From Aquimarina sp. RZ0 (GTDB taxonomy: Bacteria > Bacteroidota > Bacteroidia > Flavobacteriales > Flavobacteriaceae), in assembly GCF_008370685.1 (NCBI RefSeq), contig NZ_VTZU01000037.1, positions 1-64,000 on the forward strand: a DNA stretch of 64,000 bases, given 5' to 3'. Shown here in pieces: positions 9,536 to 46,111 of this stretch. How positions within the stretch are numbered: position 1 is the first letter of the stretch; each line of letters begins with the position of its first letter. Both the position numbers and the translations under genes were made by a program. The notes under the pieces were generated by a model that saw only the letters and a program-made list of their open reading frames with translations, made no database searches and was not told the DNA's origin.

Positions 9536-10938
9536 TAATTATTCCTTTTAACTGAGCTGTTAGCAATTGGTTTTCTATTGGCATATGCATTAGAAACTTC
9601 TCCGTCTATGACATCATCAAAAATAATGGGTAGCCTTGCATCTTTTTTTATAGTGGTTAAGTGTATATTATCAAGATACAATCCTTTAATATGTCTTGCA
9701 TAGATTCCATAAGAAGGCAAAGTGCCTATCAGATGAAACTCTGGCCACCAATTTTTTAAGACGTCAAGTGTATATTCTTTAAGAACTGTTTTTTTGGCAT
9801 CTTCTACAGTTCCTTCTCCAGAAACAGTCATTCTAATATTTGAAAGTGTTATATTTTCTATATAATGATCCGTTATTCCGGTTATAAAAATAGCAGCGTC
9901 TTTATTCAGATCACGATTATCTATTACCATATTACTGAATATAAAGTCTCGCATAGATTTCATAGGATACATTTCTTCTGGTGCATCTACGCAAGCTTTC
10001 TGTTGCGCAAAAGTCATAAAAATAGGTCGGGGAACATTCTTCATAATCAGATTAGAGAACACCATGTTTTTCATTTTACCACCTTCATTCATCTGTATTT
10101 TTAAGCCGGTATCATCAATATCACTAAAGGTACAATTACTCACGGTTACAGATTCAAAATTCCCTCTGGAGAGAAGCCCAATCCGCATACCTGCCCATTT
10201 ACTTTGGAAAGTACAATTGGTAATCACTACATTTTTGCACGGAATATCAGGTTGAGAAGCCTGTAAACAAATAGAATCATCACTGGTATTAAAAGAACTA
10301 TTTGATACACGCACATTAGAACATCCATCAAAATCGAGACCATCTCCGTTATGATTAACCCTACTATGAATCTTGATTCCATCCACAACAATTTCGTTAC
10401 AATATAAAAATGCAGAAGTCCAGGCAGCAGGGTTAATAATCTGTACATCTCTTATATGTATATCCGTACTATTCATGAACCGAATGAGCATGGGGCGACC
10501 TGTTTCTTTATTAAAATTCTTAGGGTGACCATTTCCATCAATAGTTCCATATCCTTCAATACTTATTGATTTAACTCCATCAGCAAAGATCAGACAACGA
10601 TCCATATGAGGTTCGTTTTTATACATATTCTTATGTGTATTATCAGAATAATCTTTGATATAAGGACTTCCTAATAAGATTGCTCCATTTTCTATATGCA
10701 GTGTAACAAAGTCTTTTAAAAAAATAGTGCCAACAAGTACTTTTTTGCCAGCAGGTATTAATACAGTACCTCCGCCATTTTTTGTAGCAGTATCTATTGC
10801 CTTCTGTACTGCTTGAGTGTCTTTATGGATTCCATTACCGATGGCACCAAAATCCAATACGTTATATTCCTTAGAAAAACAGCATGAAACTGCAAATAAG
10901 AAACAAATCATTATTAATTTTTCATTATATCTGATCAT
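9535..10938 (-). CDS. GH28 (polygalacturonase-family) beta-helix protein, copy 2
   Basis: About 467 residues from the chosen ATG at 10938, which gives a clean export signal (MIRYNEKLIMICFLFAVSC). An in-frame ATG at 10962 would add eight residues. The opening EYNVLDFGAIGNGIHKD and later repeats are typical of the GH28 beta-helix. The catalytic set is Asp202/Asp204 in GDGLDFDG and Asp220-Asp221 in TSDDSICL, followed by DTGLKIQM in place of the R-I-K block. It is a paralogue of the next gene (8039-9535) in fold and motif order, but the two are well diverged, so the duplication is old or they were acquired separately. It follows the GH2 gene by 44 bp and is joined to copy 1 by TAATG. Its substrate is unknown. 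Confidence 0.83.
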   Translation of the reverse strand: MIRYNEKLIMICFLFAVSCCFSKEYNVLDFGAIGNGIHKDTQAVQKAIDTATKNGGGTVLIPAGKKVLVGTIFLKDFVTLHIENGAILLGSPYIKDYSDNTHKNMYKNEPHMDRCLIFADGVKSISIEGYGTIDGNGHPKNFNKETGRPMLIRFMNSTDIHIRDVQIINPAAWTSAFLYCNEIVVDGIKIHSRVNHNGDGLDFDGCSNVRVSNSSFNTSDDSICLQASQPDIPCKNVVITNCTFQSKWAGMRIGLLSRGNFESVTVSNCTFSDIDDTGLKIQMNEGGKMKNMVFSNLIMKNVPRPIFMTFAQQKACVDAPEEMYPMKSMRDFIFSNMVIDNRDLNKDAAIFITGITDHYIENITLSNIRMTVSGEGTVEDAKKTVLKEYTLDVLKNWWPEFHLIGTLPSYGIYARHIKGLYLDNIHLTTIKKDARLPIIFDDVIDGEVSNAYANRKPIANSSVKRNN

Positions 10939-10982
10939 AACTATTTGTTTTATTATTTGCAATTAATATTGTTTTGTATTCT

Positions 10983-13478
10983 CTATTTTGACAGGAGTAC
11001 AATCGTTTCAGTAGTCAAACCATCTGCTGTAGCTTTTATAGTAATCTTGCCGGGTTTTTCTTGAGATCTAACAATCAATTGGCACAGTCCGTTAAATGCT
11101 TTTCTAGAATTAGCCTGAAAAGATTCTAAAGAAGTTTGATCACCATTTCCTACGGCAGCTAGAACTCCTGCGCCTGATATTTCGAATTGTATTTTATTAT
11201 TTGCTCTGGGACATAGATTTCCGGATTTATCCTCTATCCTTATGGTAATGAAGGAAAGGTCTTCTCCATCGGCATTGATTTCTGTTCTGTCAGCAATTAA
11301 TTTTATTCTAGCAGGAGCACTGGCAGTTTTAATTTCTTTTTCGACAACTGCGGCACCATTTTTATATCCAATAACTTTAATACTTCCAGGTTGGTAGGGT
11401 ACATTCCAGGAAAGTCTGTATTTAGAAGTATACATTCCTTTTTTGAATCCATGAAATTCTGCAGGGAGTTTTGTTGTGTCTACTCCTTTTATTTTTTTAC
11501 CAAAGGATTTTCCATTTACAATTAACTCAACCTCATCGCAATTGGTGTAAGAGTATATGGGGATATTATCTCCTTCTTTGCCTTCCCAGTTCCAATGTGG
11601 TAATACGTGAACCATAGGTTCAGATGTCCACTGACTTTGGTATAAGTAATATCGATCTTTAGGAAAACCGCAAAGATCTACTGGAGCAAAATAAGATGAT
11701 TTTGAAGGCCAGTCATCATTCCAATACCCATCCGTAGAGTTATCTCTTCCTCCATATGGAGTGGGTTCACCAAGATAATCAAATCCTGTCCAGATAAACT
11801 CTCCCAATGAAAAAGGATTTTGTTTCTGAAAATCGAATTCTACATCAGGAGGATATGCCCATACAGGTCCGGTATTTACATCATAACTGGATACATGTCC
11901 GGTTTCTTTTTGGTGTAATGCTTGTATAGGAAATTGATATTCTCCACGGCTACTGGTTTGTGATGAGGTTTCAGATCCATAAATAATCATCTCGGGATTT
12001 TGCTCTTTAATTTCTGCATAATTAGCTGGGTGATAGTTAATCCCTACGACATCCACCTGATATGCTAGTTTATTAACAAAAGGAGCCGGGTAATAATTAA
12101 ATCCAATAGTTGTTGGCCTGGTATTATCCTCATTGTGACAAATATCATTAAGTCGCTTTGTAAGTATCCAACCATCTTTTTCTGCCTGTTCCAAAATTTC
12201 ATTTCCAATACTCCACATAATAACCGAAGGATGATTACGATCTCTTTTGATCATATCTCGTAAATCTTTCTCATGCCATTTGTCAAAGTATTTATTATAT
12301 CCGTTAGGGACTTTCCCTTTTTTCCACTCATCAAAAGCTTCTACAATGACAACAATCCCAAGACGATCACAAACTTCTAATAGCTCTGGTGAAGGAGGAT
12401 TATGACTTGTTCTCAATGCATTTACTCCCATACTTTTCATAATTTGCATCTGTCTTTCTTTTGCTCGATAGCTTATGGCAGCTCCTAAGGCTCCCTGATC
12501 ATGATGCATACAAACCCCGTTAAGTTCTACAGGGGTGTCATTTAGAAAGAATCCTTTATTTGCATCAAAACGAATAGAACGTACTCCAAAAGTACTTTTA
12601 TAGGAGTCGATTAGATTTTTATCTATTTTTAGATTGCTTTCTGTTGTGTAGAGATACGGAGTATGAATATCCCACAATTTAGGGTTTGATATTTCTATAG
12701 TTTGTGCAACAGATTTTTCTGATCCATGTGTTAACGCTACAGTAGAAGAAGTAGAATCTACTACATTTCCGTTAGCATCTTTTATAATAGTCTCTAGTAT
12801 TACATTAGAAGGTGTACCTACGTTTTTTACCTTGGTTTTTATACTAACAATTGCTTTTTGATCTGTTATTTCTGGCGTAGTGATATAGGTTCCCCATTGA
12901 GAAATATGAACTGAATTGTTAATTTTTAGCCTGACATTGCGATAGATTCCTGCTCCTGTATACCATCTTGCTGCAAGATCTTCTGGGGATAATTGAACAG
13001 CGATGACATTATCTTCTCCAAATTTGATATGAGGGGTTAAATCAAATTCAAAACCGATATATCCATAAGGTCTTTCGCCAATATAATTACCATTAAGCCA
13101 GACTTTGGCATTGTTCATAGCGCCATCAAATTCTATAGAAATTTGTTGATTTTGATGTTTCTTGTCTATAGTAAAATGTTTTCTATACCATCCTGTGCCA
13201 TGAACAGGAAGCCCACCAGTTCTGGCATTGTATTTATTATCAAAAGGTCCTTCGATCGCCCAATCATGTGGTAAATTTAGACTACGCCACTTAGAATCAT
13301 CTAGACCGATAGTTTCGCCTCCTTCAATTACTCCTTTACTAAAAAGCCACTTTTTATTGAAGTTTTGATCCTCTACAGGTGGTAACTTTTCTATGTTTTT
13401 TGAGCAAGAAATACATACAGTAAATAATGGTAATAACCAGAATAATATTGAAATTATTGGAGATTTAATTAGATTCAT
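10983..13478 (-). CDS. GH2 beta-galactosidase-type lipoprotein
   Basis: An 831-residue GH2 enzyme with a lipoprotein signal (LFTVCISC, Cys25). Domain order: sugar-binding beta-sandwich (about 40-185, GTGWYRKHF), immunoglobulin-like domain (190-300), TIM barrel (about 305-600), a DUF4982-type domain (about 620-700) and a C-terminal Ig-like domain (about 725-831). The catalytic pair is intact: acid/base Glu427 in WSIGNEILE and nucleophile Glu503 in YGSETSS. Family function is exo-removal of beta-D-galactose (or a related beta-linked sugar) in the periplasm. In this cluster it would remove terminal beta-D-galactose from oligogalactans between the steps done by sulfatase and GH29. It lies between the mutarotase (51 bp) and GH28 genes in one long transcript. 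Confidence 0.87.
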   Translation of the reverse strand: MNLIKSPIISILFWLLPLFTVCISCSKNIEKLPPVEDQNFNKKWLFSKGVIEGGETIGLDDSKWRSLNLPHDWAIEGPFDNKYNARTGGLPVHGTGWYRKHFTIDKKHQNQQISIEFDGAMNNAKVWLNGNYIGERPYGYIGFEFDLTPHIKFGEDNVIAVQLSPEDLAARWYTGAGIYRNVRLKINNSVHISQWGTYITTPEITDQKAIVSIKTKVKNVGTPSNVILETIIKDANGNVVDSTSSTVALTHGSEKSVAQTIEISNPKLWDIHTPYLYTTESNLKIDKNLIDSYKSTFGVRSIRFDANKGFFLNDTPVELNGVCMHHDQGALGAAISYRAKERQMQIMKSMGVNALRTSHNPPSPELLEVCDRLGIVVIVEAFDEWKKGKVPNGYNKYFDKWHEKDLRDMIKRDRNHPSVIMWSIGNEILEQAEKDGWILTKRLNDICHNEDNTRPTTIGFNYYPAPFVNKLAYQVDVVGINYHPANYAEIKEQNPEMIIYGSETSSQTSSRGEYQFPIQALHQKETGHVSSYDVNTGPVWAYPPDVEFDFQKQNPFSLGEFIWTGFDYLGEPTPYGGRDNSTDGYWNDDWPSKSSYFAPVDLCGFPKDRYYLYQSQWTSEPMVHVLPHWNWEGKEGDNIPIYSYTNCDEVELIVNGKSFGKKIKGVDTTKLPAEFHGFKKGMYTSKYRLSWNVPYQPGSIKVIGYKNGAAVVEKEIKTASAPARIKLIADRTEINADGEDLSFITIRIEDKSGNLCPRANNKIQFEISGAGVLAAVGNGDQTSLESFQANSRKAFNGLCQLIVRSQEKPGKITIKATADGLTTETIVLLSK

Positions 13479-13529: not shown

Positions 13530-13871
13530 TTATAATTTGAATATTTGTTCCATCGGCACCCATTTTTCATCGTTTTCTGCCCAAGGTAATCTTTGTTGGA
13601 ATGTATCCATTAAAGTTTCCCATTCTTTAACCTTTGGATTCTCAGCATCCATAGCGGCTTTTTTTACCGGATCAAAGGTGTCATCCACTTCCATGATCAT
13701 AAAGAGTCGATTTCCGGTAAGATAAATTTGCATATCTACAATTCCCGCATCTTTAATACTCTTAGTGATTTCGGGCCACTCATTACCAGCGGCATGGTAT
13801 TTTTTATATGTTTCTATCAGTTTTGGATCGTTTTTTAGATCACAGGATAGACAATATCTTTTGGTATTCAT
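13530..13871 (-). CDS. L-rhamnose mutarotase-family (COG3254) sugar mutarotase
   Basis: A 113-residue protein of the RhaM/COG3254 family, recognisable from CLSCDLKNDP, the central HAAGNEWPEI, the IYLTGNRLFMIMEV strand and the C-terminal LPWA.....W.PMEQIF. Family members interconvert alpha and beta anomers of L-sugars such as L-rhamnose. Relatives are common in L-fucose and L-galactose gene clusters. It is cytoplasmic with no signal peptide. The gene follows the symporter gene with only 3 bp between them, so import and anomer equilibration are probably co-translated. In this pathway it would supply the anomer used by the sugar dehydrogenase. L-galactose specificity is inferred from context. 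Confidence 0.8.
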   Translation of the reverse strand: MNTKRYCLSCDLKNDPKLIETYKKYHAAGNEWPEITKSIKDAGIVDMQIYLTGNRLFMIMEVDDTFDPVKKAAMDAENPKVKEWETLMDTFQQRLPWAENDEKWVPMEQIFKL

Positions 13872-13874
13872 TTT

Positions 13875-15203
13875 TTAACTGTTTTTTTGAATTTTAGAAA
13901 CATATAAACCGTAAAGCCCCACTACAGCGACACATATTAAAGGCATAATAAATGAGAATTTTACTTCTGGAATTCCAAGGATTAAGGTGTCTGCTAACTG
14001 GTCTCCTCCTATATCAATAATCAACCCTTGTATTGGAGGAAAAATAGCTCCTCCTACAATTGCCATTACCAAAAAGGCAGAACCTACTTTTGCCTCATCA
14101 CCCATATCTTTTAGTGCAATACCATAGATTGTTGGGAACATAATAGACATAAAAACAGAAATACATACTAATGATATCAGTCCCGGCATACCTGGCATTA
14201 AGATTGCACCGGTACAGCAAATAATAGCTAATAGCGCAAATAATGAAAGTAGTCTGGGAGCTTTGAGCTTACTTAAGAGTGCAGTTCCAAGAAAACGACC
14301 TCCGAGAAATATCCCCATAGCAATCATGTTCCAATAAGTAGCATTTAATTCTCTGCCAGCAGCTCCTGTTTCATTGATATACTGAACATATTGGTATATA
14401 GCTGTCCAGCACATGATTTGGGCACCTACATAAAACATTTGGGCAATAACACCTGGAAAAAAAGCTTTTTTAGCAAATATTTTTTTGATAGATTCTTTAA
14501 AAGTTAATGATACTTGTTCTTGTACAGTTGGGATTTTTGTCACTAAAACTAACCCTAAAATAATCAAAACAACTACACCAATACCTAAATAAGGATAACT
14601 TATGATACTTAGATCTTCAGTCTTTATGGATGCTTTTGCTGCTTGATCAAGAGCAGCATAAGATTCTTCATTATATTTAGCGGATTGTATTTGCCCTAGT
14701 ACAACAAATTGAGCAATCATCATACCTGATAAAGATCCAATTGGATTAAATGATTGAGCCAGGTTTAATCGTTGTGTGGCAGTCTCTTTTGCACCCAAAG
14801 ATAGAATCAAAGGGTTGGACGTAGTTTCTAATAAAGCTAAACCACAAGTGATAATATAAAGTGACAACAGAAAGAAACCATAACTCTCTAAACTGGAAGC
14901 AGGAAAAAACATAAATGCTCCAAATGCATATAATAGTAATCCTAAGATTATTCCAGATTTATAACTTTTCCACCTAATAAATAAGGCTGCAGGTAATGCC
15001 ATACATCCATATCCAAAATAAAATGCAAACTGAACCAGATAGGCTTGAAACCAGCTTAGTTCCGGCATTACTTTTTTGAAAGCAGTAACCATTGGATTTG
15101 TAACATCATTTGCAAAACCCCATAAAGCAAAAAGAGTCGTAATAACAATAAAAGGGACTAGTAATTCCTTACTTACAATAGGAGTTTTTTTGATATTTTC
15201 CAT
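13875..15203 (-). CDS. fucP: FucP-type L-fucose/L-galactose:H+ symporter (MFS)
   Basis: A 442-residue inner-membrane transporter with about 12 hydrophobic segments and a central loop near residues 170-195. The FucP signatures are near the start of helix 1 and 2 (LFALWGFANDVTNP, LVQFAFYFGYGCMALPA) and in LLETTSNPLILSLG. FucP family members carry L-fucose and often L-galactose, which differ only at C6. The gene sits between the sugar dehydrogenase and the mutarotase. It is the only inner-membrane sugar carrier in the window, so it is the best candidate for bringing in the released L-sugar. The gene symbol reflects the family; the true substrate here is inferred to be L-galactose. Confidence 0.85.
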   Translation of the reverse strand: MENIKKTPIVSKELLVPFIVITTLFALWGFANDVTNPMVTAFKKVMPELSWFQAYLVQFAFYFGYGCMALPAALFIRWKSYKSGIILGLLLYAFGAFMFFPASSLESYGFFLLSLYIITCGLALLETTSNPLILSLGAKETATQRLNLAQSFNPIGSLSGMMIAQFVVLGQIQSAKYNEESYAALDQAAKASIKTEDLSIISYPYLGIGVVVLIILGLVLVTKIPTVQEQVSLTFKESIKKIFAKKAFFPGVIAQMFYVGAQIMCWTAIYQYVQYINETGAAGRELNATYWNMIAMGIFLGGRFLGTALLSKLKAPRLLSLFALLAIICCTGAILMPGMPGLISLVCISVFMSIMFPTIYGIALKDMGDEAKVGSAFLVMAIVGGAIFPPIQGLIIDIGGDQLADTLILGIPEVKFSFIMPLICVAVVGLYGLYVSKIQKNS

Positions 15204-15254
15204 AATCTATTAGGTATTGTTAGTGTTAATAATATTAGATTCTATATTGATTAT

Positions 15255-16046
15255 TTATTCTGTCAATAATGCTCTGTCCAGATGAACATATCCACCATCA
15301 ATAGTAATAAATTGCCCGGTAGTATGGGAAGATTTTTCTGAAATCACAAAAAGACAGGTATCTGCAATTTCTTGTGGAGAGGTCATACGATTTTCTAATG
15401 GTATTTTTTTTACAATAGCTTGTAATTTTTCTTCACCATTTTCTAAGGTTTTGATCCAATTATCATAGGCAGGTGTCCAACTTTCTGCAATAACAATTGC
15501 ATTGGATCGAATTCCATCTTTAATTAAATCTACAGCCCATTCTCTTGTTAATCCCAGGACACCTCCTTTAGAAGCGGCATATCCCGAGGTACCCCCTTGT
15601 CCTGTTAGCGCTACTTTAGAACCAATGTTTAGAATGTTTCCCTTTACTTTTTTGATATAAGGAAGACAAAATTTAGTCATTGCAAAAAAACTTACCATAT
15701 TGAGTTTAAGGGAGTACATAAAATCATCAATAGAAGCATCTAATCCAACGCCATCATTAACCCCCACATTATTGATCAAAGCATCAATTCTGCCATATGT
15801 GTCACCAATTTTTTTTGCAGCCATTTCAATTTGGTCAGCATCAGAAAGATCAGTCTTTACAAAGATGGAATTGATACCTCTCTCTTGTAGCTCTTTTTCA
15901 TACCCAAATCCACGATCATTTCTACAAACAATGACAGGTATTGCTCCTTCATCTGCTAATGTTTGTACAATAGTTTCTCCAATACTTCCCTTGATCCCTG
16001 CAGCACCGGTAACTACAACTACTTTATCTTTTAATTTTAAATCCAT
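15255..16046 (-). CDS. SDR-family sugar 1-dehydrogenase (L-galactose/L-fucose dehydrogenase)
   Basis: A 263-residue classical short-chain dehydrogenase. The cofactor loop is TGAAGIKGSIG (13-23), with an insert versus the usual TGxxxGxG. Then come NNVG (92-95), catalytic Ser143 in NIGSKVAL, and Tyr156/Lys160 in YAASK. The C-terminus (TGQFITIDGG) is typical. It lies between the symporter and the COG3618 lactonase, so the predicted reaction is oxidation of the sugar at C1 to a 1,5-lactone, which the next enzyme opens. Similar SDRs act on L-fucose. The downstream enzymes present here (L-galactonate-type dehydrogenase, UxaB, UxaA) favour L-galactose. The protein is cytoplasmic. Specificity is inferred. 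Confidence 0.8.
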   Translation of the reverse strand: MDLKLKDKVVVVTGAAGIKGSIGETIVQTLADEGAIPVIVCRNDRGFGYEKELQERGINSIFVKTDLSDADQIEMAAKKIGDTYGRIDALINNVGVNDGVGLDASIDDFMYSLKLNMVSFFAMTKFCLPYIKKVKGNILNIGSKVALTGQGGTSGYAASKGGVLGLTREWAVDLIKDGIRSNAIVIAESWTPAYDNWIKTLENGEEKLQAIVKKIPLENRMTSPQEIADTCLFVISEKSSHTTGQFITIDGGYVHLDRALLTE

Positions 16047-16061
16047 AATATATTTTTTGGT

Positions 16062-16892
16062 CTAGTGCAGCTGATAAAATTCAACGGCATTGCCTCCCAT
16101 AATTTTTTGTTGATCTTCGTTGGTAAACGTACTGATATAGGTGTCAATTATTCCTTTTACAGATTGATATGTTCCTCCTAAAAGGCAAACCGGCCAATCT
16201 GAACCATACATAATTCTATCTGTTCCAAAAATTTCGAAAACTATATCTAGATAAGGAACGAAATCATCATATTTCCAGTTTTTCCAATCTGCTTCTGTAA
16301 CCATTCCGGAAACTTTGCAATACACATTTTTATGTACTGCTATTTGGCGCATATATTTTTCCCAATCTTCTATATGTCCTTCTTTTATATTTGGTTTTGC
16401 AATATGATCTATAACAAAACGGTGTTCCGGAAATTCATTAATCAATTGCACTGTAGCTTCTAGTTGTGCAGGGAATATTAAAATATCATAAGCGAACCCA
16501 TATTCTTTTAATAAAGCGATCCCTTTTTTAAATTGCTCGCCAATTATAAAATTAGGATCAGCTTCATCCTGTACTACATGTCTGAAACCTTTTATTATTT
16601 TATATTGGGCGTAATGCTGCAAGCGTTCTCTCAGGTTTTCTGAACGTAGATCTACCCATCCGACGATTCCTTTTATGAAACTATTTTTCTTTGCAAGACT
16701 CAAAAGGAAATCAGTTTCGTTTTCAGATTGATCTGCCTGAACTGCTACGCATCCGTCTATTCCATTTTTTTGATATACTTGATAAAGATCTTCCGGTAGA
16801 TAATCTTGTTGCAATACTTTCATTTGATCATTAATCCAACTGTGTTTTACTGGATGATATTGCCAAAAATGTTGATGAGAATCTATGGTCAT
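16062..16892 (-). CDS. COG3618 amidohydrolase-superfamily sugar lactonase (L-galactono-/L-fuconolactonase)
   Basis: A 276-residue TIM-barrel hydrolase. The metal motif is at the start (DSHQHFW, His6 and His8), followed by GIVGWVDLRS, KGFRHVVQDE, VIDHIAKP, VSGMVTEADW and the terminal metal-site Asp232 in MYGSDWPVC. This set is diagnostic of COG3618 lactonases acting on L-fucono- and L-galactono-lactones. The first ATG overlaps the UxaB stop by four bases (ATGA), and the SDR follows after 15 bp, so lactone formation and hydrolysis are made together. The predicted product is L-galactonate. It is cytoplasmic. Confidence 0.85.
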   Translation of the reverse strand: MTIDSHQHFWQYHPVKHSWINDQMKVLQQDYLPEDLYQVYQKNGIDGCVAVQADQSENETDFLLSLAKKNSFIKGIVGWVDLRSENLRERLQHYAQYKIIKGFRHVVQDEADPNFIIGEQFKKGIALLKEYGFAYDILIFPAQLEATVQLINEFPEHRFVIDHIAKPNIKEGHIEDWEKYMRQIAVHKNVYCKVSGMVTEADWKNWKYDDFVPYLDIVFEIFGTDRIMYGSDWPVCLLGGTYQSVKGIIDTYISTFTNEDQQKIMGGNAVEFYQLH

Positions 16893-18361
16893 ACTAGTGA
16901 TTTGTGGTCTGTAATTTGTTTCATTGTAGCCTTTACTCCAAGCTGTTCTATAAACTGTAGATTTTGGACTACTTCTTTTGATAATCCATGTATCTTATCC
17001 AGATCTTCTCCCCAGATATCTGAATTTTTAAGAGAAACTAACACTAATTCTTCATAAGAAATAAGTTTATCCTCCTTTTTTTTCCAATTATTTCTGAAAA
17101 AATCTAGTATTTCAGTATTGTCGTTTAGATTGATATTTTCATTATTATATTCCCCTTTGTACATTCTTATTAAACATGAAAATGCAAATACAATACGTTT
17201 TGGCAGCTGTCCATTTTCTATAACACACTCTTTAATAGCTGGAAGTAAGCGTGTTACAAATTTTGAACAGCTATTAAGTGAAATATTAATAAGAAAATGT
17301 TTTAATGTAGGGTTGCGAAACCTATCTAAGGTATCGTTTACAAACTTGTGTACTTCATCTTGTGGGAGATTGGTAAGTGTAGTAATAATTTCATTACTCA
17401 GTAATTCCTCAACAAAAGTACTTATATCAGTATCGTTCATTACTTCTTTTACGGTGCGTACTCCTGATAAATATCCTACAGGAACCATAGCTGTATGTGC
17501 TCCATTAAGAATACGTACTTTCATTTCCCGATATTCAGTAATGTCATCTACGAATTGGACGTGTAAGTTTGTCTTATGAAAGGGTAATTCTTTTTGGGTT
17601 GCATCGTTTGCTCCTTGTATAATCCAACTATGATATTGTTCTCCTGCAACCAGGAGTTTGTCTTCAAAATCAATTTGAGCTCTTATTTTTTCTGCTCTTT
17701 CTGTTGGATAGCCTGATACAATTCTATCGACTAGTGTATTACAAAAATAATTATGTTCTTTTATCCAGTTGCCAAATTTGGTTTTTAGTTTCCAATGTTC
17801 AGCATATTGTAAAACAACAGATTTTAATCTGTCTCCATTCTGCTCAATCAGTTCACAGGGGAGTATGATACATCCTTTATTGGTATCACCTTCAAAATAT
17901 TGAAAACGATGGTATAACCAGCGTGTTAGTTTGGCAGGAAATTCTTTGGGAGGTGCATGATCCAGTGCATCAGTGTCTGAGAATTGTATACCAGCCTCTG
18001 TTGTATTAGAAACAATAAAACGCATTTCTGATTGCTCTGCCAGCTCTAGATACTTCTGCCATTGTCTATAGGGATGTATAGTTCTGCTAATACTTTTAAT
18101 AAGAGTCACTTCAGAAACGAGATTGCCATTTTTATAACCGTCCAAGGCTACGTGAAAAAGACCGTCCTGCTCCTTTAGTTCTTGGTACTCTCCTTTTTCT
18201 GTAGGTTTAATAACTACAACACTCCCGTTAAAATCAGTGGTTGAATTGAGTACATGAAACATCCAGTCGGTAAAGGCCCTTAAAAAATTCCCTCCTCCAA
18301 ACTGTAAAATGCGTTCGGGAGCTTTTTTTCTTGTTGAGATGGTTTTTTCTTGTTTTTTCAT
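16889..18361 (-). CDS. uxaB: Tagaturonate reductase (altronate oxidoreductase)
   Basis: A 490-residue member of the polyol-specific long-chain dehydrogenase family. The N-terminal NAD-binding stretch is ILQFGGGNFLRAF, and the family's catalytic block is KVRILNGAHTAMVP in the C-terminal half. Length and motifs fit UxaB, which reduces D-tagaturonate to D-altronate with NADH. In D-galacturonate breakdown its substrate comes from uronate isomerase UxaC, but no uxaC is present here. Instead a zinc dehydrogenase is encoded two genes upstream that could make tagaturonate from L-galactonate. It overlaps the lactonase gene by four bases and follows altronate dehydratase by 42 bp. It is cytoplasmic. 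Confidence 0.88.
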   Translation of the reverse strand: MKKQEKTISTRKKAPERILQFGGGNFLRAFTDWMFHVLNSTTDFNGSVVVIKPTEKGEYQELKEQDGLFHVALDGYKNGNLVSEVTLIKSISRTIHPYRQWQKYLELAEQSEMRFIVSNTTEAGIQFSDTDALDHAPPKEFPAKLTRWLYHRFQYFEGDTNKGCIILPCELIEQNGDRLKSVVLQYAEHWKLKTKFGNWIKEHNYFCNTLVDRIVSGYPTERAEKIRAQIDFEDKLLVAGEQYHSWIIQGANDATQKELPFHKTNLHVQFVDDITEYREMKVRILNGAHTAMVPVGYLSGVRTVKEVMNDTDISTFVEELLSNEIITTLTNLPQDEVHKFVNDTLDRFRNPTLKHFLINISLNSCSKFVTRLLPAIKECVIENGQLPKRIVFAFSCLIRMYKGEYNNENINLNDNTEILDFFRNNWKKKEDKLISYEELVLVSLKNSDIWGEDLDKIHGLSKEVVQNLQFIEQLGVKATMKQITDHKSLV

Positions 18362-18403
18362 TCGTTATTGTACTACCTTTTTTTAACTGTTTTTAGCATT
18401 ATA

Positions 18404-20056
18404 TCATAGCGATATTCCTCTTTTCCAGGGGATAAAGTCATTTTGACCATTTTTTTCGGCTTTTGTTTCAATAGTTCCGCTGGCAACCTTTATGATATAT
18501 TCCAGTGTTTTTTCTCCCATGGATTCTATGGTATCTTCTCCAGAAATAATAGTACCGGCATTGAGATCCGTAATATCATTCATTTGCTGAAACAATCTTG
18601 TATTACTAGACATTTTAAGAACAGGTGTAATTGGATTTCCTGTTGGAGTGCCCAGTCCAGTTGTAAACACAATTATATTAGCACCACTTCCTGCCAGTCC
18701 TGTAGTGCTTTCTACATCATTTCCGGGCGTGCAAAGCAGGTTTAATCCTGATGTAGTTACTTTTTCTGTGTAATCTAATACAGCAGTCACGGGGGAAGTA
18801 CCTCCTTTTTTTGCTGCTCCAGCCGATTTCATGGCATCTGTAATCAATCCATCTTTAATATTTCCTGGAGAAGGATTGTTCTCGAATCCAGATCCTACTT
18901 CTATAGCTTTTTTTGCATAGGTTTTCATAATAGATGCAAATTTCTCTGCATCTTTCTTTTGCAGACACCTGTTAATCAATTCCTGTTCTACGCCATTTAA
19001 CTCAGGAAACTCAGCTAAAATGGGAGTTCCACCCAATTCTGTCAATAGATCAGATGTGTATCCTAATGCGGGATTCGCTGAAATCCCAGAAAAGCCATCA
19101 GATCCTCCACATTCTAATCCAAGGATAAGTTTACTGATGGGAGCTGGCTTTCTTTCAATTTTATTCGCTTCAATTAATCCAACAAACGTGTGCTTAATTG
19201 CTGCTTCTATAAGTAAATCTCCGTTTTCAATTTTTTGTTGTTCCAGATAATGGATAGGTTTTGAAAAGTTGGGGTCTTTTAACTCAATAGCCTTTTGCAA
19301 CATATCTATTTGTGCATTTTGGCAACCTAAACTAAAAATGGTTGCACCAGCTACATTGGAGTTTGTAATATATCCTGCCAGCAGGTGACATAATGTTTCA
19401 GCATCTTGCCGGATACCACCACAACCGCCATCATGTTTTAAAAACTTGATTCCATCCACATTAGAGAATAAACGGTTTTTAGAAGATGTTTTCTGAGATG
19501 AAGTAATGGTAGTATTTAATAACTCTTCAGATGTGGCGCCAGATTTATATTTCTCGATTAGAGTATTTGTATCTACTCCAAAATCTTTTTGGGTTTGATA
19601 TCCTAATGTGTCTAATAAAGCATCTTCCAAAATTTCCAGATTTCTATTTTCGCAAAAAGTTAGTGGGATCACTAACCAATAATTACGAGTTCCTACACTA
19701 CCATCTTTTCTATAATATCCATCAAACGTTTTAGTACTGAATTTTGTGATATTAGGTTTTGTCCATTCCAGACTTTCCTGGCTGGTATTAAACGTTGCAG
19801 AAGCATGTTTTGTGTTCTCTGTTGTTATAGCACAACCTTGATCAATAGGAAGAATAGCTTTGCCGATGAGTACGCCATACATGAATATGGAATCACCTTT
19901 TTCGAATTTGTTTAGGGCAAATTTATGCTTTTCTTTTATGTTTTCTTTTAGCGTAAAGGTAGTTCCTGCAATATCAATCAATGTGCTTTCTGGTAAATAT
20001 TGTATGGCAACAATAATATTATCTCTTGGGTCTATTTGGGTATAACTTTTTGACAC
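18404..20056 (-). CDS. uxaA: Altronate dehydratase
   Basis: A 550-residue protein with the two-part UxaA layout. An N-terminal SAF-type domain (about 10-90) is linked to the catalytic UxaA domain (about 110-550), which opens with DGYYRKDGSVGTRNYW. Conserved cysteine/glycine blocks likely involved in metal binding are HDGGCGGIR, SLGCQNAQ, LGLECGGSDGFSG and CTPGNDVESTTGLAGSGAN. The reaction is dehydration of D-altronate to 2-keto-3-deoxy-D-gluconate. L-fuconate dehydratase activity has been seen in some relatives and cannot be ruled out, but the adjacent UxaB gene argues for altronate. No KDG kinase or aldolase gene is in the window. The enzyme is cytoplasmic. Confidence 0.88.
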   Translation of the reverse strand: MSKSYTQIDPRDNIIVAIQYLPESTLIDIAGTTFTLKENIKEKHKFALNKFEKGDSIFMYGVLIGKAILPIDQGCAITTENTKHASATFNTSQESLEWTKPNITKFSTKTFDGYYRKDGSVGTRNYWLVIPLTFCENRNLEILEDALLDTLGYQTQKDFGVDTNTLIEKYKSGATSEELLNTTITSSQKTSSKNRLFSNVDGIKFLKHDGGCGGIRQDAETLCHLLAGYITNSNVAGATIFSLGCQNAQIDMLQKAIELKDPNFSKPIHYLEQQKIENGDLLIEAAIKHTFVGLIEANKIERKPAPISKLILGLECGGSDGFSGISANPALGYTSDLLTELGGTPILAEFPELNGVEQELINRCLQKKDAEKFASIMKTYAKKAIEVGSGFENNPSPGNIKDGLITDAMKSAGAAKKGGTSPVTAVLDYTEKVTTSGLNLLCTPGNDVESTTGLAGSGANIIVFTTGLGTPTGNPITPVLKMSSNTRLFQQMNDITDLNAGTIISGEDTIESMGEKTLEYIIKVASGTIETKAEKNGQNDFIPWKRGISL

Positions 20057-20085
20057 GTGAAAGGGCTTATTTTTTTGTAATCTAA

Positions 20086-21093
20086 TTAAAAGTCAATAGT
20101 TGCTTTTATTACTCCGGTTTCAGGTTTTGTCCAACTATCAAAATTTGAAATCATTTCAGAAAAAGGAACATTATGAGTGATAAAAGATCCGGTCGGGAAT
20201 TGGGGTAAAACTTTTATTACATGTTCAAAATCCTCAATAGTTGCATTTCTACTGCACATCAGTGTTGTTTCTTTTGCGTGGATTTTGGGATGGGCGAATT
20301 GCAATTCACCCTTTGACAATCCTACAAGGATGTATCTACCGCCATGAGCCATATAATCTGGTCCTGCTTCTAATGCTCCTTTATAACCGGTGGCATCAAA
20401 AACCGCAGTTGCCATATCCCCATTTGTAATATCAGAAATTTTGGAAACAGGATCTTTTGTGACGTTAATTACATAATCTGCTCCAATTTCATTTTTAGCA
20501 TATTCCAGTCGCGTATCATTCATATCTAAAGCAATTACTTTTGCACCTTGGATTTGGGCTAATTTTATAATTCCGATTCCGATTGGACCGCAACCCACCA
20601 CGACTACAAATTCTTCTGGTTTAATGGCTGCTCTTCTGATAGCATGTGCTCCAATTGCCAGTGGTTCTACGATCGCAATTTCATCATATGATAAGTCATT
20701 TGCAGGAATCAACAAATCAGTTCTAACGGTGATTTGCTCTTGCATTCCTCCATCTGTATGTACCCCAAGTACTTCTATATTAGTACAGCAGTTGGTTTTA
20801 CCTTTTCTACAGGCGATACAAGTACCACAGCTTACATACGGCATGATAACTACTTTATCACCTTTTTTGATATTTCTTGCGTTTTTATCTATATCTATAA
20901 CTTCTGCAGCTAATTCATGACCTAAAATCTTTGGGTAAGTGAAAAATGCTTGATTTCCAGAATATGCATGAAGGTCGGTACCACAAATCCCTACTTTTTT
21001 TACCCTCAGAAGGGCTTCATCATTATTTCGGATAGGTGTTTTTTTTTCTTCTAATAGAAACATTCCAGGTTTCTGGCAAACGATGTATTTCAT
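20086..21093 (-). CDS. Zinc-dependent MDR alcohol dehydrogenase, probable L-galactonate 5-dehydrogenase
   Basis: A 335-residue medium-chain dehydrogenase. Catalytic zinc ligands are Cys37 in GICGTDLHAY and His59-Glu60 in GHELAAEV. The structural zinc is held by Cys89, Cys92, Cys95 and Cys103 in SCGTCIACRKGKTNCC. The Rossmann motif is VVVGCGPIGIG, and Asp in VIALDMND favours NAD. Length and motifs resemble E. coli LgoD (YjjN) and the Bacteroides L-galactonate dehydrogenase, which oxidise L-galactonate to D-tagaturonate. The position directly before uxaA and uxaB supports this. It follows the GH29 gene by 107 bp, with an AACCATTT motif in the gap, so it may start its own transcript. Confidence 0.8.
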   Translation of the reverse strand: MKYIVCQKPGMFLLEEKKTPIRNNDEALLRVKKVGICGTDLHAYSGNQAFFTYPKILGHELAAEVIDIDKNARNIKKGDKVVIMPYVSCGTCIACRKGKTNCCTNIEVLGVHTDGGMQEQITVRTDLLIPANDLSYDEIAIVEPLAIGAHAIRRAAIKPEEFVVVVGCGPIGIGIIKLAQIQGAKVIALDMNDTRLEYAKNEIGADYVINVTKDPVSKISDITNGDMATAVFDATGYKGALEAGPDYMAHGGRYILVGLSKGELQFAHPKIHAKETTLMCSRNATIEDFEHVIKVLPQFPTGSFITHNVPFSEMISNFDSWTKPETGVIKATIDF

Positions 21094-21200: not shown

Positions 21201-22772
21201 TTAAAGACTAATAGCAACTACGTGTGCATAATCACCTATTTTTTTGGTAGGTAGCGTTATGTGCAGTGCTGTATCTTTATGAGACCATTCTAATGTGGTA
21301 TCACTGCCGAGTAGCTGAACATTTTTGATATTTACATTTTTAGCATATTCAGAATTTTTACCAAGTGATTCGATAGCTAATTTTCCATTTTCCGGCCAAT
21401 CCATCATGATTGCATAAAGTTTGCCATCTTTTTGTGTAAATCGGATGTCTTGTCCAGTAAAACCTTTATTGTTTTTTTCTGAATGATGTCCCTTTTCTAC
21501 CTTGGTAGGACCTTCGCCAAAAGTTTTCCAATATTTTGTATCATAAATAGCTTCTCCATTTACCGATAGCCAATTTCCTATCTCTAATAAGATTTTTTGT
21601 TGGTCTTGCGGTATAGTTCCATCAGATTTGGGACCTACATTTAATAACAGGTTTCCATTTTTACTTACAATATCCACAAGGTCATCTATCAATTGATTTG
21701 CATCTTTGGATTCCCAATTTGTTACGTGGCTCCAAGAATTCTTACCAATAGAGGTATCTGTCTGCCAGGGTAATTTTCTAATCCCAGGTAGTTTTCCTCT
21801 TTCCAGATCATAAATAACAGTTCCTTCTGGAAAGGCTTCGTGGCTAAAATTTTTATCTTGTAATACTACTTCTTTGTTCCATTCAATTCCTTTATTGTAA
21901 TAATATGCTGCCAATTTTGGACGATATTCTTCAAAATCCGGAATATCCACATAGAAATCCAGCCATAGGATATCGGGTTGGTAGTTGTCAATAATATCTT
22001 TAATTCGTAACCACCATCTTTCTTTAAATTTTTCAGAAACTGGCTCAGTAAGGTTTTTGCCTTTAGAGCTATATAGGTCTGCGTATTCTGGATCTACGGT
22101 GTCAAAATGATCTTTTTTGTTATAAAAAGACCAATTAAAGGCAAAATGAGAAGATGTTCCCATAATTAAACCATGATCTCGTCCTTCTTTAAATAACTCT
22201 CCGAGAACATCCCGTTTAGGTCCCATATCAACGGCATTCCATCTGGTTGTATTCGATTTGTACATTGCAAAACCATCGTGGTGGTCAGCAACAGGGATTA
22301 CATATTTTGCTCCGGCCTTTTTGAATAAATCTATCCATTCTTGAGCATTGAATTTTTCTCCTTTAAACATCGGAATAAAGTCTTTGTACCCAAATTTTTT
22401 ATGATCTCCCCACTTTTCTTTATGATGTTTAAACTCTTTTGTCGGGCCATCATAATGATGTTCCAGACCAGCACTAAAATTAGCACTATCCATATACATT
22501 TGCCTTGGATACCATTCTGAACCAAAAGCAGGAACACTGTAGGCTCCCCAATGAATAAAAATTCCAAATTTTTGATTATTAAACCATTCTGGATCTTTGT
22601 ATTTTTTCTTTATTGATTCCCAGTTAGGTTCATATTTTTTTTGTAGTGTATCAATTACCTCTGGAACAGGAGATTCCTGAGCTATCTTTTTGTTTTTATC
22701 CGATCCACACGAGATTAAAAGTAGGATACAAAAAAAATGAGCGATTAATAAAGTTATTTTTCTCACAATCAT
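21201..22772 (-). CDS. GH29 alpha-L-fucosidase-family lipoprotein (possible exo-alpha-L-galactosidase), copy 1
   Basis: A 523-residue exo-glycosidase. A lipoprotein signal ends LLISC (Cys22). The TIM barrel has FGIFIHWGAYSVPAFGSEWY (69-88), the substrate-binding HHDGF (164-168) and the predicted nucleophile Asp272 in ILWLDFYVD. NLLLNVGPKSDGTIP is a typical late GH29 block. A C-terminal beta-sandwich ends the protein. GH29 removes alpha-linked L-fucose, but members from porphyran loci remove L-galactose. With no fucose source obvious and an L-galactose pathway directly downstream, L-galactosidase is my inference. The site reads MGTSSHFAF where many relatives have a SEHL-type block, and copy 2 shares this change. 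It heads the minus-strand cluster. Confidence 0.85.
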   Translation of the reverse strand: MIVRKITLLIAHFFCILLLISCGSDKNKKIAQESPVPEVIDTLQKKYEPNWESIKKKYKDPEWFNNQKFGIFIHWGAYSVPAFGSEWYPRQMYMDSANFSAGLEHHYDGPTKEFKHHKEKWGDHKKFGYKDFIPMFKGEKFNAQEWIDLFKKAGAKYVIPVADHHDGFAMYKSNTTRWNAVDMGPKRDVLGELFKEGRDHGLIMGTSSHFAFNWSFYNKKDHFDTVDPEYADLYSSKGKNLTEPVSEKFKERWWLRIKDIIDNYQPDILWLDFYVDIPDFEEYRPKLAAYYYNKGIEWNKEVVLQDKNFSHEAFPEGTVIYDLERGKLPGIRKLPWQTDTSIGKNSWSHVTNWESKDANQLIDDLVDIVSKNGNLLLNVGPKSDGTIPQDQQKILLEIGNWLSVNGEAIYDTKYWKTFGEGPTKVEKGHHSEKNNKGFTGQDIRFTQKDGKLYAIMMDWPENGKLAIESLGKNSEYAKNVNIKNVQLLGSDTTLEWSHKDTALHITLPTKKIGDYAHVVAISL

Positions 22773-26792: not shown

Positions 26793-26856
26793 TTTTTATT
26801 TGGTTTATATTACTTTTATCGAAGAAAGTCAGGTTGAGTTTAGAATTCTAAAACTT

Positions 26857-45237: not shown

Positions 45238-45247
45238 ATGTGTTCTA

Positions 45248-46111
45248 CTACTTTTTTTTCCATATTCTAACATATTGTACGTGATATTCCCCGTTGAGGC
45301 GATTGTCATCCGGTAATGCTCCAAACCATTTGTTGGATTCACAATTGATGTTAATTTCCAGGGGTTGGTGCCAATGCGTGTTTTTTGCCTCTCTGAATAG
45401 TATTCCATCTATGTAAAATCTTATAAATTCGGGAGTCCATTCTAAACCCCAGACGTGATAATCTTGTTGTAATTCTTGTGGGAAATAGTATTTTTTGGTT
45501 CTTGAGAAATGATTTTTCACATCTCCTTTGCCTTTTGGGGCTCTAAATACATGTAAATTAGAATTCAGATCATTTCTATTATATGTCAATCCGGGAGCAT
45601 TTTCACAGATGTCGATTTCGGTCCACCAATCTTTCCCCACATTAGTCATCCAGAAACCTGAAACCCAGGGAGCATCCATCAGTTTAAGTGATGCTTCAAA
45701 ATATCCATACAAGAACTTTTCTTTACTTTTGATAAAGCCAGTTGTATGAGTAAAGTTTTTTGGTAATTTTTCATTTTGATGCTGGTTCACCCGGATGACT
45801 AATTCATCGTTTTCTATGCTCACATTAGATGGATGAAAATAGGTGGGAGGTCTTCCTTTCCATTTTGGATTATTTTCATACCATTTGCTGGTATCCAGTA
45901 TGTTTGTTGTAAACTCATCCGAATGTTTTTTGAGAAACTCCCACTGTTTTCTGTTTTTTTGATCTGATAATGGGTAGTTACTATTAATTCGGGCTATACT
46001 ATTTTCTATTTTTATAGAATCAATATATTTTTTTGGCGGGATGGTCAAATCCTGTGCAAAGCCAGAATAATGAATAACTAATACAATCAAAAGAGCTTTG
46101 AGAATATTCAT
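45248..46111 (-). CDS. GH16 endo-beta-galactanase (porphyranase/agarase type)
   Basis: A 287-residue jelly-roll enzyme with a signal peptide (about 1-19, YSGFAQ) and no sorting tail or binding module. The GH16 catalytic motif E-x-D-x-x-E is Glu165, Asp167 and Glu170 in WWTEIDICENAPG. Other markers are GRPPTYFHPSNV, FIKSKEKFLYGYFEASLKL and HVWGLEWTPEFIRFYIDG. The compact size and WWTEIDICEN resemble agar/porphyran-active GH16 enzymes rather than laminarinases. It begins the minus-strand operon ending in GH86, with a 276-bp upstream region facing the DUF2652 gene. Expected role: cutting beta-1,4 bonds inside the chain. The subfamily is not certain. Confidence 0.87.
   Translation of the reverse strand: MNILKALLIVLVIHYSGFAQDLTIPPKKYIDSIKIENSIARINSNYPLSDQKNRKQWEFLKKHSDEFTTNILDTSKWYENNPKWKGRPPTYFHPSNVSIENDELVIRVNQHQNEKLPKNFTHTTGFIKSKEKFLYGYFEASLKLMDAPWVSGFWMTNVGKDWWTEIDICENAPGLTYNRNDLNSNLHVFRAPKGKGDVKNHFSRTKKYYFPQELQQDYHVWGLEWTPEFIRFYIDGILFREAKNTHWHQPLEININCESNKWFGALPDDNRLNGEYHVQYVRIWKKK

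What the first reader, a model, noticed from the sequence alone, without database searches (positions are those of the whole stretch)
13530..21093. Complete predicted L-galactose catabolic operon inside a red-algal galactan locus
Seven adjacent minus-strand genes form a chemically continuous route: zinc dehydrogenase, UxaA, UxaB, COG3618 lactonase, SDR sugar dehydrogenase, FucP symporter and mutarotase. Read as L-galactose to L-galactonolactone to L-galactonate to D-tagaturonate to D-altronate to 2-keto-3-deoxygluconate, every gene has a step. The first three enzymatic steps correspond to the L-galactose to D-tagaturonate route known from Bacteroides vulgatus; UxaB and UxaA are established galacturonate enzymes. 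Here the route is fused with GH2, GH28, sulfatase and GH29 genes, linking release and use of L-galactose in one transcript. L-fucose as substrate would leave UxaB and the zinc dehydrogenase unexplained.
Basis: partly seen in the sequence, partly recalled or inferred. Interest (0 to 1): 0.78.

Follow-up and report, generated by a model that had tools for sequence, protein, structure and literature searches.

The report
Seaweed L-galactose catabolic operon
A probably marine bacterium carries, side by side, genes that look able to cut the rare sugar L-galactose off red-seaweed polysaccharide and to turn it into ordinary central metabolites, a recurring gene set that is a new arrangement of mostly known chemistry and has not been tested in the laboratory.

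Summary
On the minus strand, 13530-21093 carries seven adjacent intact genes (zinc dehydrogenase, UxaA, UxaB, COG3618-type lactonase, SDR, FucP, mutarotase), closely spaced, with GH29 upstream and GH2, two GH28 and a sulfatase downstream.

L-galactose is the best reading. The genome has no UxaC match, so UxaB's tagaturonate must come from elsewhere. The zinc dehydrogenase is 40% identical to E. coli LgoD. The GH29's closest solved relative is BpGH29, an exo-alpha-L-galactosidase. In 118 UxaB loci of the family, UxaB stands beside this dehydrogenase (52) or beside UxaC (45), once with both. Genomes of the first kind include 17 of 21 with GH86 and 24 of 28 with the GH29 orthologue. In six relatives an aldo/keto reductase, nearest in the PDB to L-galactose dehydrogenases, fills the SDR's slot.

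Weak points: known SDRs of this family prefer L-fucose; related zinc dehydrogenases occur in L-fucose-type clusters; outside the UxaB sample the dehydrogenase often lacks UxaB nearby; no SusC/D was found; GH28 is unexplained; nothing has been assayed.

The chemistry is known (Phocaeicola, E. coli, Luteolibacter). The SDR entry step and this operon form were not found in the papers searched. New variant of a known kind.

The parts
21201..22772 (-). GH29, lipoprotein-like start; predicted exo-alpha-L-galactosidase releasing L-galactose
   Evidence: Pfam Alpha_L_fucos; nearest solved structures 7snk (named alpha-L-fucosidase in the PDB, but the same BpGH29), 7ljj and 7lnp (named exo-alpha-L-galactosidase), 421-424 bits against 282 for the next, a fucosidase; N-terminus read by eye
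20086..21093 (-). Zn-dependent dehydrogenase, predicted L-galactonate 5-dehydrogenase (L-galactonate to D-tagaturonate)
   Evidence: 40% identity over 337 columns to E. coli LgoD; C37, H59, E60, C89, C92, C95, C103 invariant in a 10-row alignment that includes LgoD
18404..20056 (-). UxaA-family dehydratase, predicted D-altronate to KDG
   Evidence: GD_AH_second and GD_AH_C; 31% to E. coli UxaA over 553 columns; only GD_AH_C match in the genome. Its only NCBIfam match is galactarate dehydratase, far below cut-off (254 of 731 bits)
16889..18361 (-). UxaB tagaturonate reductase (D-tagaturonate to D-altronate)
   Evidence: NF002969 650 bits; only Mannitol_dh_C match in the genome; K-x4-N-x2-H motif (its catalytic role is recalled)
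16062..16892 (-). COG3618-type sugar lactonase, predicted L-galactono-1,5-lactone to L-galactonate
   Evidence: Amidohydro_2; best NCBIfam L-fucono-1,5-lactonase 287 bits, below its cut-off of 400; nearest PDB 4dlf
15255..16046 (-). SDR of the L-fucose dehydrogenase family, predicted L-galactose 1-dehydrogenase
   Evidence: NF052481 362 bits; nearest PDB 4gkb/4glo/4gvx; next-best match in the genome only 35%
13875..15203 (-). FucP-type sugar:H+ symporter, predicted L-galactose importer
   Evidence: TIGR00885 477 bits
13530..13871 (-). RhaM-fold mutarotase
   Evidence: PF05336 112 bits; far below the L-rhamnose mutarotase equivalog cut-off
10983..13478 (-). GH2 beta-galactosidase, lipoprotein-like start, same gene block
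   Evidence: NF041463 GalB 918 bits, cut-off 900; nearest PDB 5t98
9535..10962 (-). GH28, role unknown
   Evidence: PF00295 79 bits; best PDB matches are pectin-degrading enzymes at 88 bits or less
8039..9535 (-). GH28, role unknown
   Evidence: PF00295 82 bits
6562..8148 (-). formylglycine-type sulfatase
   Evidence: PF00884 162 bits; CVPSR motif
26800..28389 (+). second GH29, opposite strand, also nearest to BpGH29
   Evidence: 53% to the first GH29
38488..40305 (-). GH86 porphyranase/agarase-type gene, separate block
   Evidence: PF18206 and PF18040
42361..45408 (-). second GH2, in the GH86 block
45248..46111 (-). GH16 gene (subfamily not determined), in the GH86 block; overlaps the called start of the GH2
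   Evidence: PF00722 73 bits

Best explanation
An operon that frees and consumes L-galactose from a red-algal (porphyran/agar-type) galactan. Inferred outside the cytoplasm: sulfatase, GH2 and GH29 trim oligosaccharides until GH29 releases L-galactose. FucP imports it and the mutarotase supplies the right anomer. Inferred inside: the SDR oxidises C1 to L-galactono-1,5-lactone; the lactonase opens it to L-galactonate; the zinc dehydrogenase oxidises C5 to D-tagaturonate; UxaB reduces C5 with the opposite stereochemistry to D-altronate; UxaA dehydrates it to KDG. The dehydrogenase/UxaB pair thus inverts C5 and turns an L-sugar acid into a D-sugar acid. KDG then goes through a kinase and KDPG aldolase encoded on another contig to pyruvate and glyceraldehyde 3-phosphate. 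Shown here: gene identities, order, conservation, absences and co-occurrence. Inferred: every substrate and reaction.
For: (a) The assembly (completeness 100) has no UxaC match, one UxaB and one UxaA, so UxaB needs another source of tagaturonate. (b) The zinc dehydrogenase is 40% identical end to end to LgoD. (c) Of 118 UxaB loci in the family, 52 carry this dehydrogenase and 45 carry UxaC; 1 carries both. The lactonase is in 39 of 52 dehydrogenase loci against 3 of 66 others; SDR 35 of 52, FucP 38, mutarotase 30 and GH29 19, against 0 of 66 each (at the identity thresholds set there). (d) 6 of the 17 dehydrogenase loci without the SDR hold an aldo/keto reductase, between lactonase and FucP. 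For the one searched, five of the seven best PDB sequences are named L-galactose dehydrogenase, at 84 to 56 bits. (e) GH29 nearest to BpGH29; its orthologues of 70% or more are in 24 of 52 operon genomes against 4 of 345 others, p=3e-20, window's genome included. (f) GH86 (PF18206 over cut-off) is in 17 of 52 operon genomes against 4 of 345 others, p=3e-13, window's genome included; by genus 13 of 36 against 4 of 201. UxaC-type genomes show no such link: 2 of 45 against 19 of 352, p=1. (g) The kinase and aldolase occur in dehydrogenase loci (13 and 15 of 52) and in the other UxaB loci (37 and 35 of 66), as a common KDG end point predicts; this genome's C223 copies are 87% and 80% identical to those of L048. 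(h) No L-fucose isomerase domain; the best match to the KDF-type hydrolase model is 113 bits, against 343 for the hydrolase of the fucose-type cluster in L054.
Against: C. jejuni FucX, of the SDR's family, has only low activity on L-galactose and the strain gains no growth from it; the Burkholderia homologue is also called weak on it (PMC6946681 passages). SDR and lactonase also occur in L-fucose-type clusters, and only two C-terminal SDR positions separate the contexts. No curated model assigns the lactonase to L-galactonolactone or UxaA to altronate. The survey started from UxaB: among 18 named loci with a dehydrogenase of 63% or more, found by the dehydrogenase instead, UxaB lies in the stretch in 9 and is missing in 9, two or more of them cut by contig ends. 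26 of 52 operon genomes have neither GH86 nor the GH29 orthologue, so the sugar's source is not always this one. Genome-wide, operon and UxaC are not significantly exclusive: 2 genomes have both, p=0.10. Fisher tests treat related genomes as independent. GH28 is unexplained. No assay or expression data exist here.
Confidence: 0.8

Rival explanations
1. L-fucose (or shared L-fucose/L-galactose) operon: SDR, lactonase, FucP and mutarotase act mainly on L-fucose, UxaA dehydrates L-fuconate, and the zinc dehydrogenase and UxaB are secondary.
For: SDR passes the L-fucose dehydrogenase cut-off. C. jejuni FucX acts on L-fucose and D-arabinose. Zinc dehydrogenases of 46-54% identity stand beside SDR and lactonase with KDF-type enzymes in Flavobacterium and others. 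L208 has both back ends in one cluster; L219 has a 67% dehydrogenase with UxaA and KDF-type genes.
Against: No fucose isomerase domain and no good KDF-type hydrolase match (113 bits, against 343 for one in a fucose-type cluster) in this genome. FAH and KDF-dehydrogenase-type genes lie in only 2 of 52 dehydrogenase/UxaB loci. UxaB is unexplained: inverting C5 of a 6-deoxy acid gives nothing a 6-kinase can use (chemical inference). In the FastTree tree one starred set holds 62 of 68 UxaB-linked dehydrogenases and 1 of 17 fucose-type ones. GH29 points to L-galactose.
Confidence: 0.12
2. D-galacturonate operon fed by the GH28 enzymes, with UxaB/UxaA as the usual lower branch.
For: Two GH28 genes in the same block; UxaB/UxaA are the galacturonate enzymes.
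Against: No UxaC in the genome. 44 of the 45 UxaC-bearing loci have the order UxaC-UxaB-UxaA and none of the other genes at the thresholds used; the 45th has UxaC on the other strand.
Confidence: 0.03
3. 3,6-anhydro-L-galactose (agar) branch: the zinc dehydrogenase is 2-keto-3-deoxy-L-galactonate 5-dehydrogenase, acting after dehydration.
For: That pathway also inverts C5 by an oxidation/reduction pair before KDG, and in Aquimarina ERC-38 its dehydrogenase is listed with PDB 1E3J as closest characterised protein (PMC10163077 passages); 1e3j is the second PDB match here.
Against: LgoD is a full-length 40% match. The partner reductase here is a tagaturonate reductase, not the EC 1.1.1.127 enzyme, and no anhydrogalactose dehydrogenase or cycloisomerase-type gene is among the operon's annotated proteins.
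Confidence: 0.04

Closest known systems
L-galactose to D-tagaturonate route of Phocaeicola (Bacteroides) vulgatus, BVU_0219/0220/0222 (original paper recalled, not held; BVU_0219 and BVU_0222 are mentioned in the discussion of PMC12632266; 0220 recalled)
   Same: Same predicted intermediates; lactonase and L-galactonate dehydrogenase for steps 2 and 3 (their families there are recalled).
   Different: Step 1 is an SDR here, an enzyme of the plant L-galactose dehydrogenase cluster there; UxaB, UxaA, importer and GH29 are in the same block here.
Luteolibacter LG18 lguABCDEF (PMC12632266: abstract, passages, discussion)
   Same: Dehydrogenase, tagaturonate reductase and altronate dehydratase to KDG, with gene disruption data.
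   Different: LguA clusters with the known L-galactose dehydrogenases; the word lactonase does not occur in that paper; serves L-glucose too.
E. coli L-galactonate pathway LgoD-UxaB-UxaA
   Same: Same three middle steps; dehydrogenase 40% identical.
   Different: No L-galactose oxidation or lactonase (recalled); lgoD and uxaA/uxaC are far apart.
Predicted L-fucose/L-fuconate/L-galactonate loci of Halomonas HL-48/HL-93 and Chromohalobacter (PMC5507952 passages)
   Same: lgoD, uxaA and uxaB (or uxaF) next to fucose-type genes.
   Different: TRAP uptake of acids; L-fuconate branch present; no sugar-releasing glycosidases mentioned in the passages seen.
Bacteroides plebeius porphyran locus BpS1_11-BpGH29-BpGH2C (PMC12316285 passages)
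   Same: Sulfatase, GH29 exo-alpha-L-galactosidase, GH2, GH16 and GH86 act on porphyran.
   Different: 'dehydrogenase', 'lactonase' and 'altronate' have 0 occurrences in that paper; SusC/D there, none found here.
C. jejuni fuc operon (PMC6946681 passages)
   Same: SDR dehydrogenase and fucose permease; the other shared genes are recalled.
   Different: L-fucose/D-arabinose substrate; no growth gain on L-galactose.

Membership tests
P. vulgatus-type L-galactose pathway | aldo/keto reductase L-galactose dehydrogenase at step 1 | tested here: not met
   SDR in the window; an AKR fills the slot in 6 of 52 relatives' loci
P. vulgatus-type L-galactose pathway | COG3618-type lactonase and zinc-type L-galactonate dehydrogenase | tested here: met
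P. vulgatus-type L-galactose pathway | activity on L-galactose, L-galactonolactone, L-galactonate | not testable with these tools
   needs purified enzymes
E. coli LgoD-UxaB-UxaA L-galactonate route | homologues of all three enzymes present | tested here: met
   LgoD 40%, UxaA 31%; UxaB NF002969 650 bits
D-galacturonate isomerase pathway | UxaC | tested here: not met
   0 matches of PF02614 in the genome; the model rings in 7 of 14 control genomes
Non-phosphorylating L-fucose pathway | L-fucose dehydrogenase-family SDR | tested here: met
   NF052481 over cut-off
Non-phosphorylating L-fucose pathway | 2,4-diketo-3-deoxy acid hydrolase | tested here: not met
   best NF053535 match 112.7 bits; the cut-off of 500 is strict, since the hydrolase of L054's fucose-type cluster itself scores 343
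Non-phosphorylating L-fucose pathway | enolase-type L-fuconate dehydratase | not tested
   no genome-wide search made; none in the operon
GH29 exo-alpha-L-galactosidase | closest to BpGH29 rather than to fucosidases | tested here: met
   421-424 against 282 bits
GH29 exo-alpha-L-galactosidase | activity on desulfated porphyran oligosaccharides | not testable with these tools
   needs assay
Porphyran polysaccharide utilization locus | SusC/SusD pair | tested here: not met
   none among 40 of 44 window frames scanned nor the 6 complete frames in the contig's end; one could lie on another contig
Porphyran polysaccharide utilization locus | porphyranase of GH16 or GH86 | tested here: met
   GH86 domains at 38488-40305 and GH16 at 45248-46111, in a separate block; activity not known

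The most novel reading that the evidence does not exclude
A modular and widespread marine L-galactose pathway, undescribed so far: an SDR of the L-fucose dehydrogenase family has become a dedicated L-galactose dehydrogenase, interchangeable with an unrelated aldo/keto reductase in the same operon slot. One shared front end (FucP, mutarotase, dehydrogenase, lactonase) is plugged either into a C5-inverting back end (zinc dehydrogenase, UxaB, UxaA) for L-galactose or into a KDF back end for L-fucose, and this closes the carbon budget of porphyran in marine Flavobacteriaceae.
Probability: 0.6. Interest if true: 0.6.

Novelty: new variant of a known kind. Interest (0 to 1): 0.5.

Why it matters
In porphyran the alpha-linked unit is L-galactose-6-sulfate (PMC5849685 passage). 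The passages seen here follow it to free galactoses in gut Bacteroides, and none gives a catabolic fate for L-galactose in marine degraders. This operon offers a concrete, testable route. It would let L-galactose use be predicted from genomes (36 genus codes in the family sample; named genomes with it include Zobellia, Maribacter and Aquimarina). It also supplies a natural enzyme swap (SDR for AKR) for studying how a fucose enzyme could be turned to L-galactose.

Tried and rejected
D-galacturonate reading: rejected (no UxaC, other gene order). L-fucose isomerase pathway: no PF02952 match. Phosphate-free L-fucose branch: no good hydrolase match. Anhydro-L-galactose branch: kept as a minor rival. 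SDR specificity from fixed residues: led nowhere, only two C-terminal positions differ. Bacteroidota-type promoter motif (recalled pattern) upstream of GH29 and in three gaps: no hit. The sigma-70-type scan of 5800-23300 found fewer sites than shuffles, 63 against a mean of 75; of 15 terminator-like sites (mean 9.3 in shuffles) the three on the minus strand lie inside genes. So the transcript's ends stay unknown. Genome-wide exclusion of operon and UxaC: not significant (p=0.10). The gene at 48851-50524, which carries an FGE-sulfatase domain, is GldJ and not a sulfatase activator. No structure prediction was run.

Dropped rows: of 123 non-window UxaB matches listed with E below 1e-80, 118 were fetched; the five weakest (G325, G249, G183, G004, G376) were not. 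More distant mannitol-dehydrogenase-like matches were left out, and says more matches are not listed. 'Operon' genomes are those with the dehydrogenase (50% identity or more, half its length) in the fetched UxaB stretch, plus the window's own; a dehydrogenase encoded elsewhere would be missed. GH86 counts use the 21 of 24 genomes over the Pfam cut-off. GH29 counts use the 28 of 30 genomes with a match of 70% identity or more. The tree rows (154 dehydrogenases, 73 SDRs) come from both the unnamed and the named genomes, so one organism may appear twice. Four of the window's 44 frames were not scanned against Pfam.
Full report
Observation. The window (bases 1-64000 of a 71,920-base contig in a 7.04-Mb genome, completeness 100, contamination 1.89) carries on its minus strand the seven genes named, all intact, with gaps of -4 to 51 bases between them. 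GH29 stands 107 bases upstream, and GH2, GH28, GH28 and a CxPSR-type sulfatase follow downstream. Active-site signatures are in place: K-x4-N-x2-H in UxaB, YxxxK in the SDR, HxH in the lactonase (their meaning is recalled), and the cysteine/histidine set of the zinc dehydrogenase that is shared with LgoD.

What feeds UxaB. The genome has one UxaB, one UxaA and no UxaC match. Tagaturonate therefore does not come from galacturonate by the usual isomerase. The zinc dehydrogenase is 40% identical over its whole length to E. coli LgoD, the L-galactonate oxidoreductase; its best PDB matches are RspB (4ilk) and a ketose reductase (1e3j). That leaves L-galactonate, and before it a lactonase and a sugar 1-dehydrogenase, as a consistent chain. 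Chemically, dehydrogenase plus UxaB invert C5 and so convert an L-acid to a D-acid that enters the common KDG route; this is inference. UxaA's substrate is not fixed by any model: its only NCBIfam match is galactarate dehydratase, far below cut-off.

Conserved gene order. UxaB was sought in 397 genomes of the family: 148 had a match. Of the 123 non-window matches with E below 1e-80 I fetched 118. 52 loci carry the dehydrogenase, 45 carry UxaC, 1 carries both and 22 carry neither. Among the 52, UxaA is in 42, lactonase 39, FucP 38, SDR 35, mutarotase 30, GH29 19; among the other 66, UxaA is in 62, lactonase 3, and SDR, FucP, mutarotase, GH29 in none. 21 loci have all seven genes in the window's order and strand, two of them with a GH29 inserted. 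Named genomes with the set include Zobellia russellii (L212), Z. uliginosa (L213) and the uncultured Aquimarina (L227, 81% dehydrogenase identity), each with GH29 in front. A scan of 84,980 named genomes that started from the dehydrogenase kept its best 80 loci. Of the 18 at 63% identity or more, 9 have UxaB and 11 UxaA in the stretch; of the 62 below 60%, 6 have UxaB and 11 have KDF-type genes. So the dehydrogenase is not always tied to UxaB, and L214, L217, L218, L221, L222, L224 and L226 among the close ones lack it for reasons not worked out.

A natural swap. 17 of the 52 loci have no SDR of this kind. In six of them a frame of about 315 residues stands between lactonase and FucP. Four of the six were scanned and are aldo/keto reductases; the other two match one of them at 79% and 87%. 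For the one searched, five of the seven best PDB sequences are named L-galactose dehydrogenase (7lh6, 9w6y, 7smi, 8scc, 7ezi), at modest scores of 84 to 56 bits, with IolS (75) and another oxidoreductase (70) between them. No locus has both SDR and AKR; the remaining 11 have neither. LguA and BVU_0219 cluster with the plant L-galactose dehydrogenase (PMC12632266 discussion). One caution: an AKR of P. mimosarum accepts D-arabinose, L-fucose and L-galactose (PMC6336799 passages).

Where the sugar comes from. The GH29 and a second one at 26800-28389 are both nearest in the PDB to BpGH29, well ahead of fucosidases. BpGH29 acts on desulfated porphyran oligosaccharides as an exo-alpha-L-galactosidase (PMC12316285 passages). 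Orthologues of the first GH29 at 70% identity or more are in 24 of 52 operon genomes and 4 of 345 others; two of these four (G184, G289) have UxaA, UxaB and lactonase without the dehydrogenase in the stretch. GH86 is in 17 of 52 against 4 of 345, in 13 of 36 operon genera against 4 of 201, and unlinked to UxaC-type loci (2 of 45). The window's genome is counted in these, and they do not correct for kinship beyond the genus count. In the window itself a second block has GH86, CE2-type esterase, GH2 and GH16. Against a simple porphyran story: 26 of 52 operon genomes have neither marker, no SusC/D was found on the contig among the frames scanned, and the two GH28 genes have no porphyran role that I know of, although GH28 relatives stand near the operon in G177, G011 and G377.

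The L-fucose rival. The SDR belongs to the L-fucose dehydrogenase family, and C. jejuni FucX of that family is poor on L-galactose. In Flavobacterium and others, SDR and lactonase stand with a KDF-dehydrogenase-like SDR, an FAH-type hydrolase and a zinc dehydrogenase of 46-54% identity, without UxaA/UxaB. So the front end is shared and the dehydrogenase alone does not decide. The back end speaks for L-galactose: FAH/KDF genes occur in 2 of 52 dehydrogenase/UxaB loci, and this genome has no fucose isomerase domain and only a 113-bit match to the hydrolase model, against 343 bits for the hydrolase in L054. In a 154-row FastTree tree the dehydrogenases of UxaB loci fall 62 of 68 into one starred set that holds 1 of 17 fucose-type rows; five of the six outside are Bacillota and one is from Lentisphaerota. 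The SDR tree is clustered by context too, with 3 changes between the two labels in either tree. L208 joins both back ends to one front end, and L054/L056 have them side by side. Predicted Halomonas loci are a published precedent for such joining (PMC5507952 passages).

The end of the route. A PfkB kinase and KDPG aldolase pair lies on contig C223, which also has two GH86 domains. It is 87% and 80% identical to a pair embedded in the L048 operon between dehydrogenase and UxaA. The same pair accompanies both UxaB settings, as expected if both end in KDG. A second, more distant pair is on C178 (36% and 29%).

Novelty. The reactions are known from P. vulgatus (recalled, and), E. coli and Luteolibacter. 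Nine literature searches and the passages opened showed no description of this operon or of an SDR-type L-galactose dehydrogenase in marine Bacteroidota. That library omits most subscription journals, so an earlier description cannot be excluded. The Zobellia transcriptome paper was seen as passages only; its main text has no occurrence of altronate, tagaturonate or fucose, and its tables could not be read here. I rate it a new variant of a known kind, interest 0.5.

Noticed in passing
window 29753-32920 and 33887-37396: Two large TPR-CHAT proteins in tandem (caspase-like CHAT domain behind tetratricopeptide repeats) between the two galactan blocks.
   Followed up: no
window 48851-50524, 50716-54570, 54591-55787: GldJ, a C25 peptidase of 1284 aa (probably PorU, recalled) and PorV: gliding/type IX secretion genes that mark the right end of the galactan region.
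   Followed up: partly
window 8039-10962: Two GH28 genes in the operon of a genome without UxaC; GH28 relatives also stand near the operon in G177, G011 and G377. Their substrate may not be pectin.
   Followed up: partly
window 45248-46111: A GH16 gene whose frame overlaps the called start of the GH2 at 42361-45408 by about 160 bases; the first scan missed it.
   Followed up: partly
window 40312-41256: 314-aa protein with no Pfam match over cut-off beside the GH86 and CE2-type genes, with a hint of a type IX sorting tail.
   Followed up: no
L208 4010-14988: One cluster holding FucP, mutarotase, KDF-type SDR and FAH-type hydrolase, lactonase, SDR, zinc dehydrogenase, kinase, aldolase, UxaB and UxaA: L-fucose and L-galactose back ends on one front end (the KDF-type labels by eye).
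   Followed up: partly
L194, L206, L210, L199: L-fucose-type clusters carry a zinc dehydrogenase of 46-53% identity although the textbook pathway (recalled) has no obvious step for it; the unlabelled frames beside it were not searched for a dehydratase.
   Followed up: no
L214, L217, L218, L221, L222, L224, L226: Dehydrogenases of 63-73% identity without UxaB in the stretch; in L214 and L217 the SDR and FucP are there all the same.
   Followed up: no
L116 5023-6246 and L108: A PPi-PFK-like protein inside two dehydrogenase loci that also have the KDG kinase and aldolase; Luteolibacter's KDG kinase uses pyrophosphate, whether it is of the same family was not checked.
   Followed up: no
L248, L258, L266, L278, L291: Bacillota loci with a related zinc dehydrogenase (47-50%) beside UxaB, outside the main clade; substrate unknown.
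   Followed up: no
Flammeovirga pacifica WPAGA1 (PMC5385347 passages): Its neighbouring tagaturonate reductase and altronate dehydratase genes are read there as galacturonate metabolism, yet the strain grows on porphyran and not on pectate; they may belong to an L-galactose route.
   Followed up: no
own genome C101, C241, C79: Open frames of about 3,700 to 6,600 residues with weak SDR-like matches, perhaps polyketide or peptide synthases.
   Followed up: no
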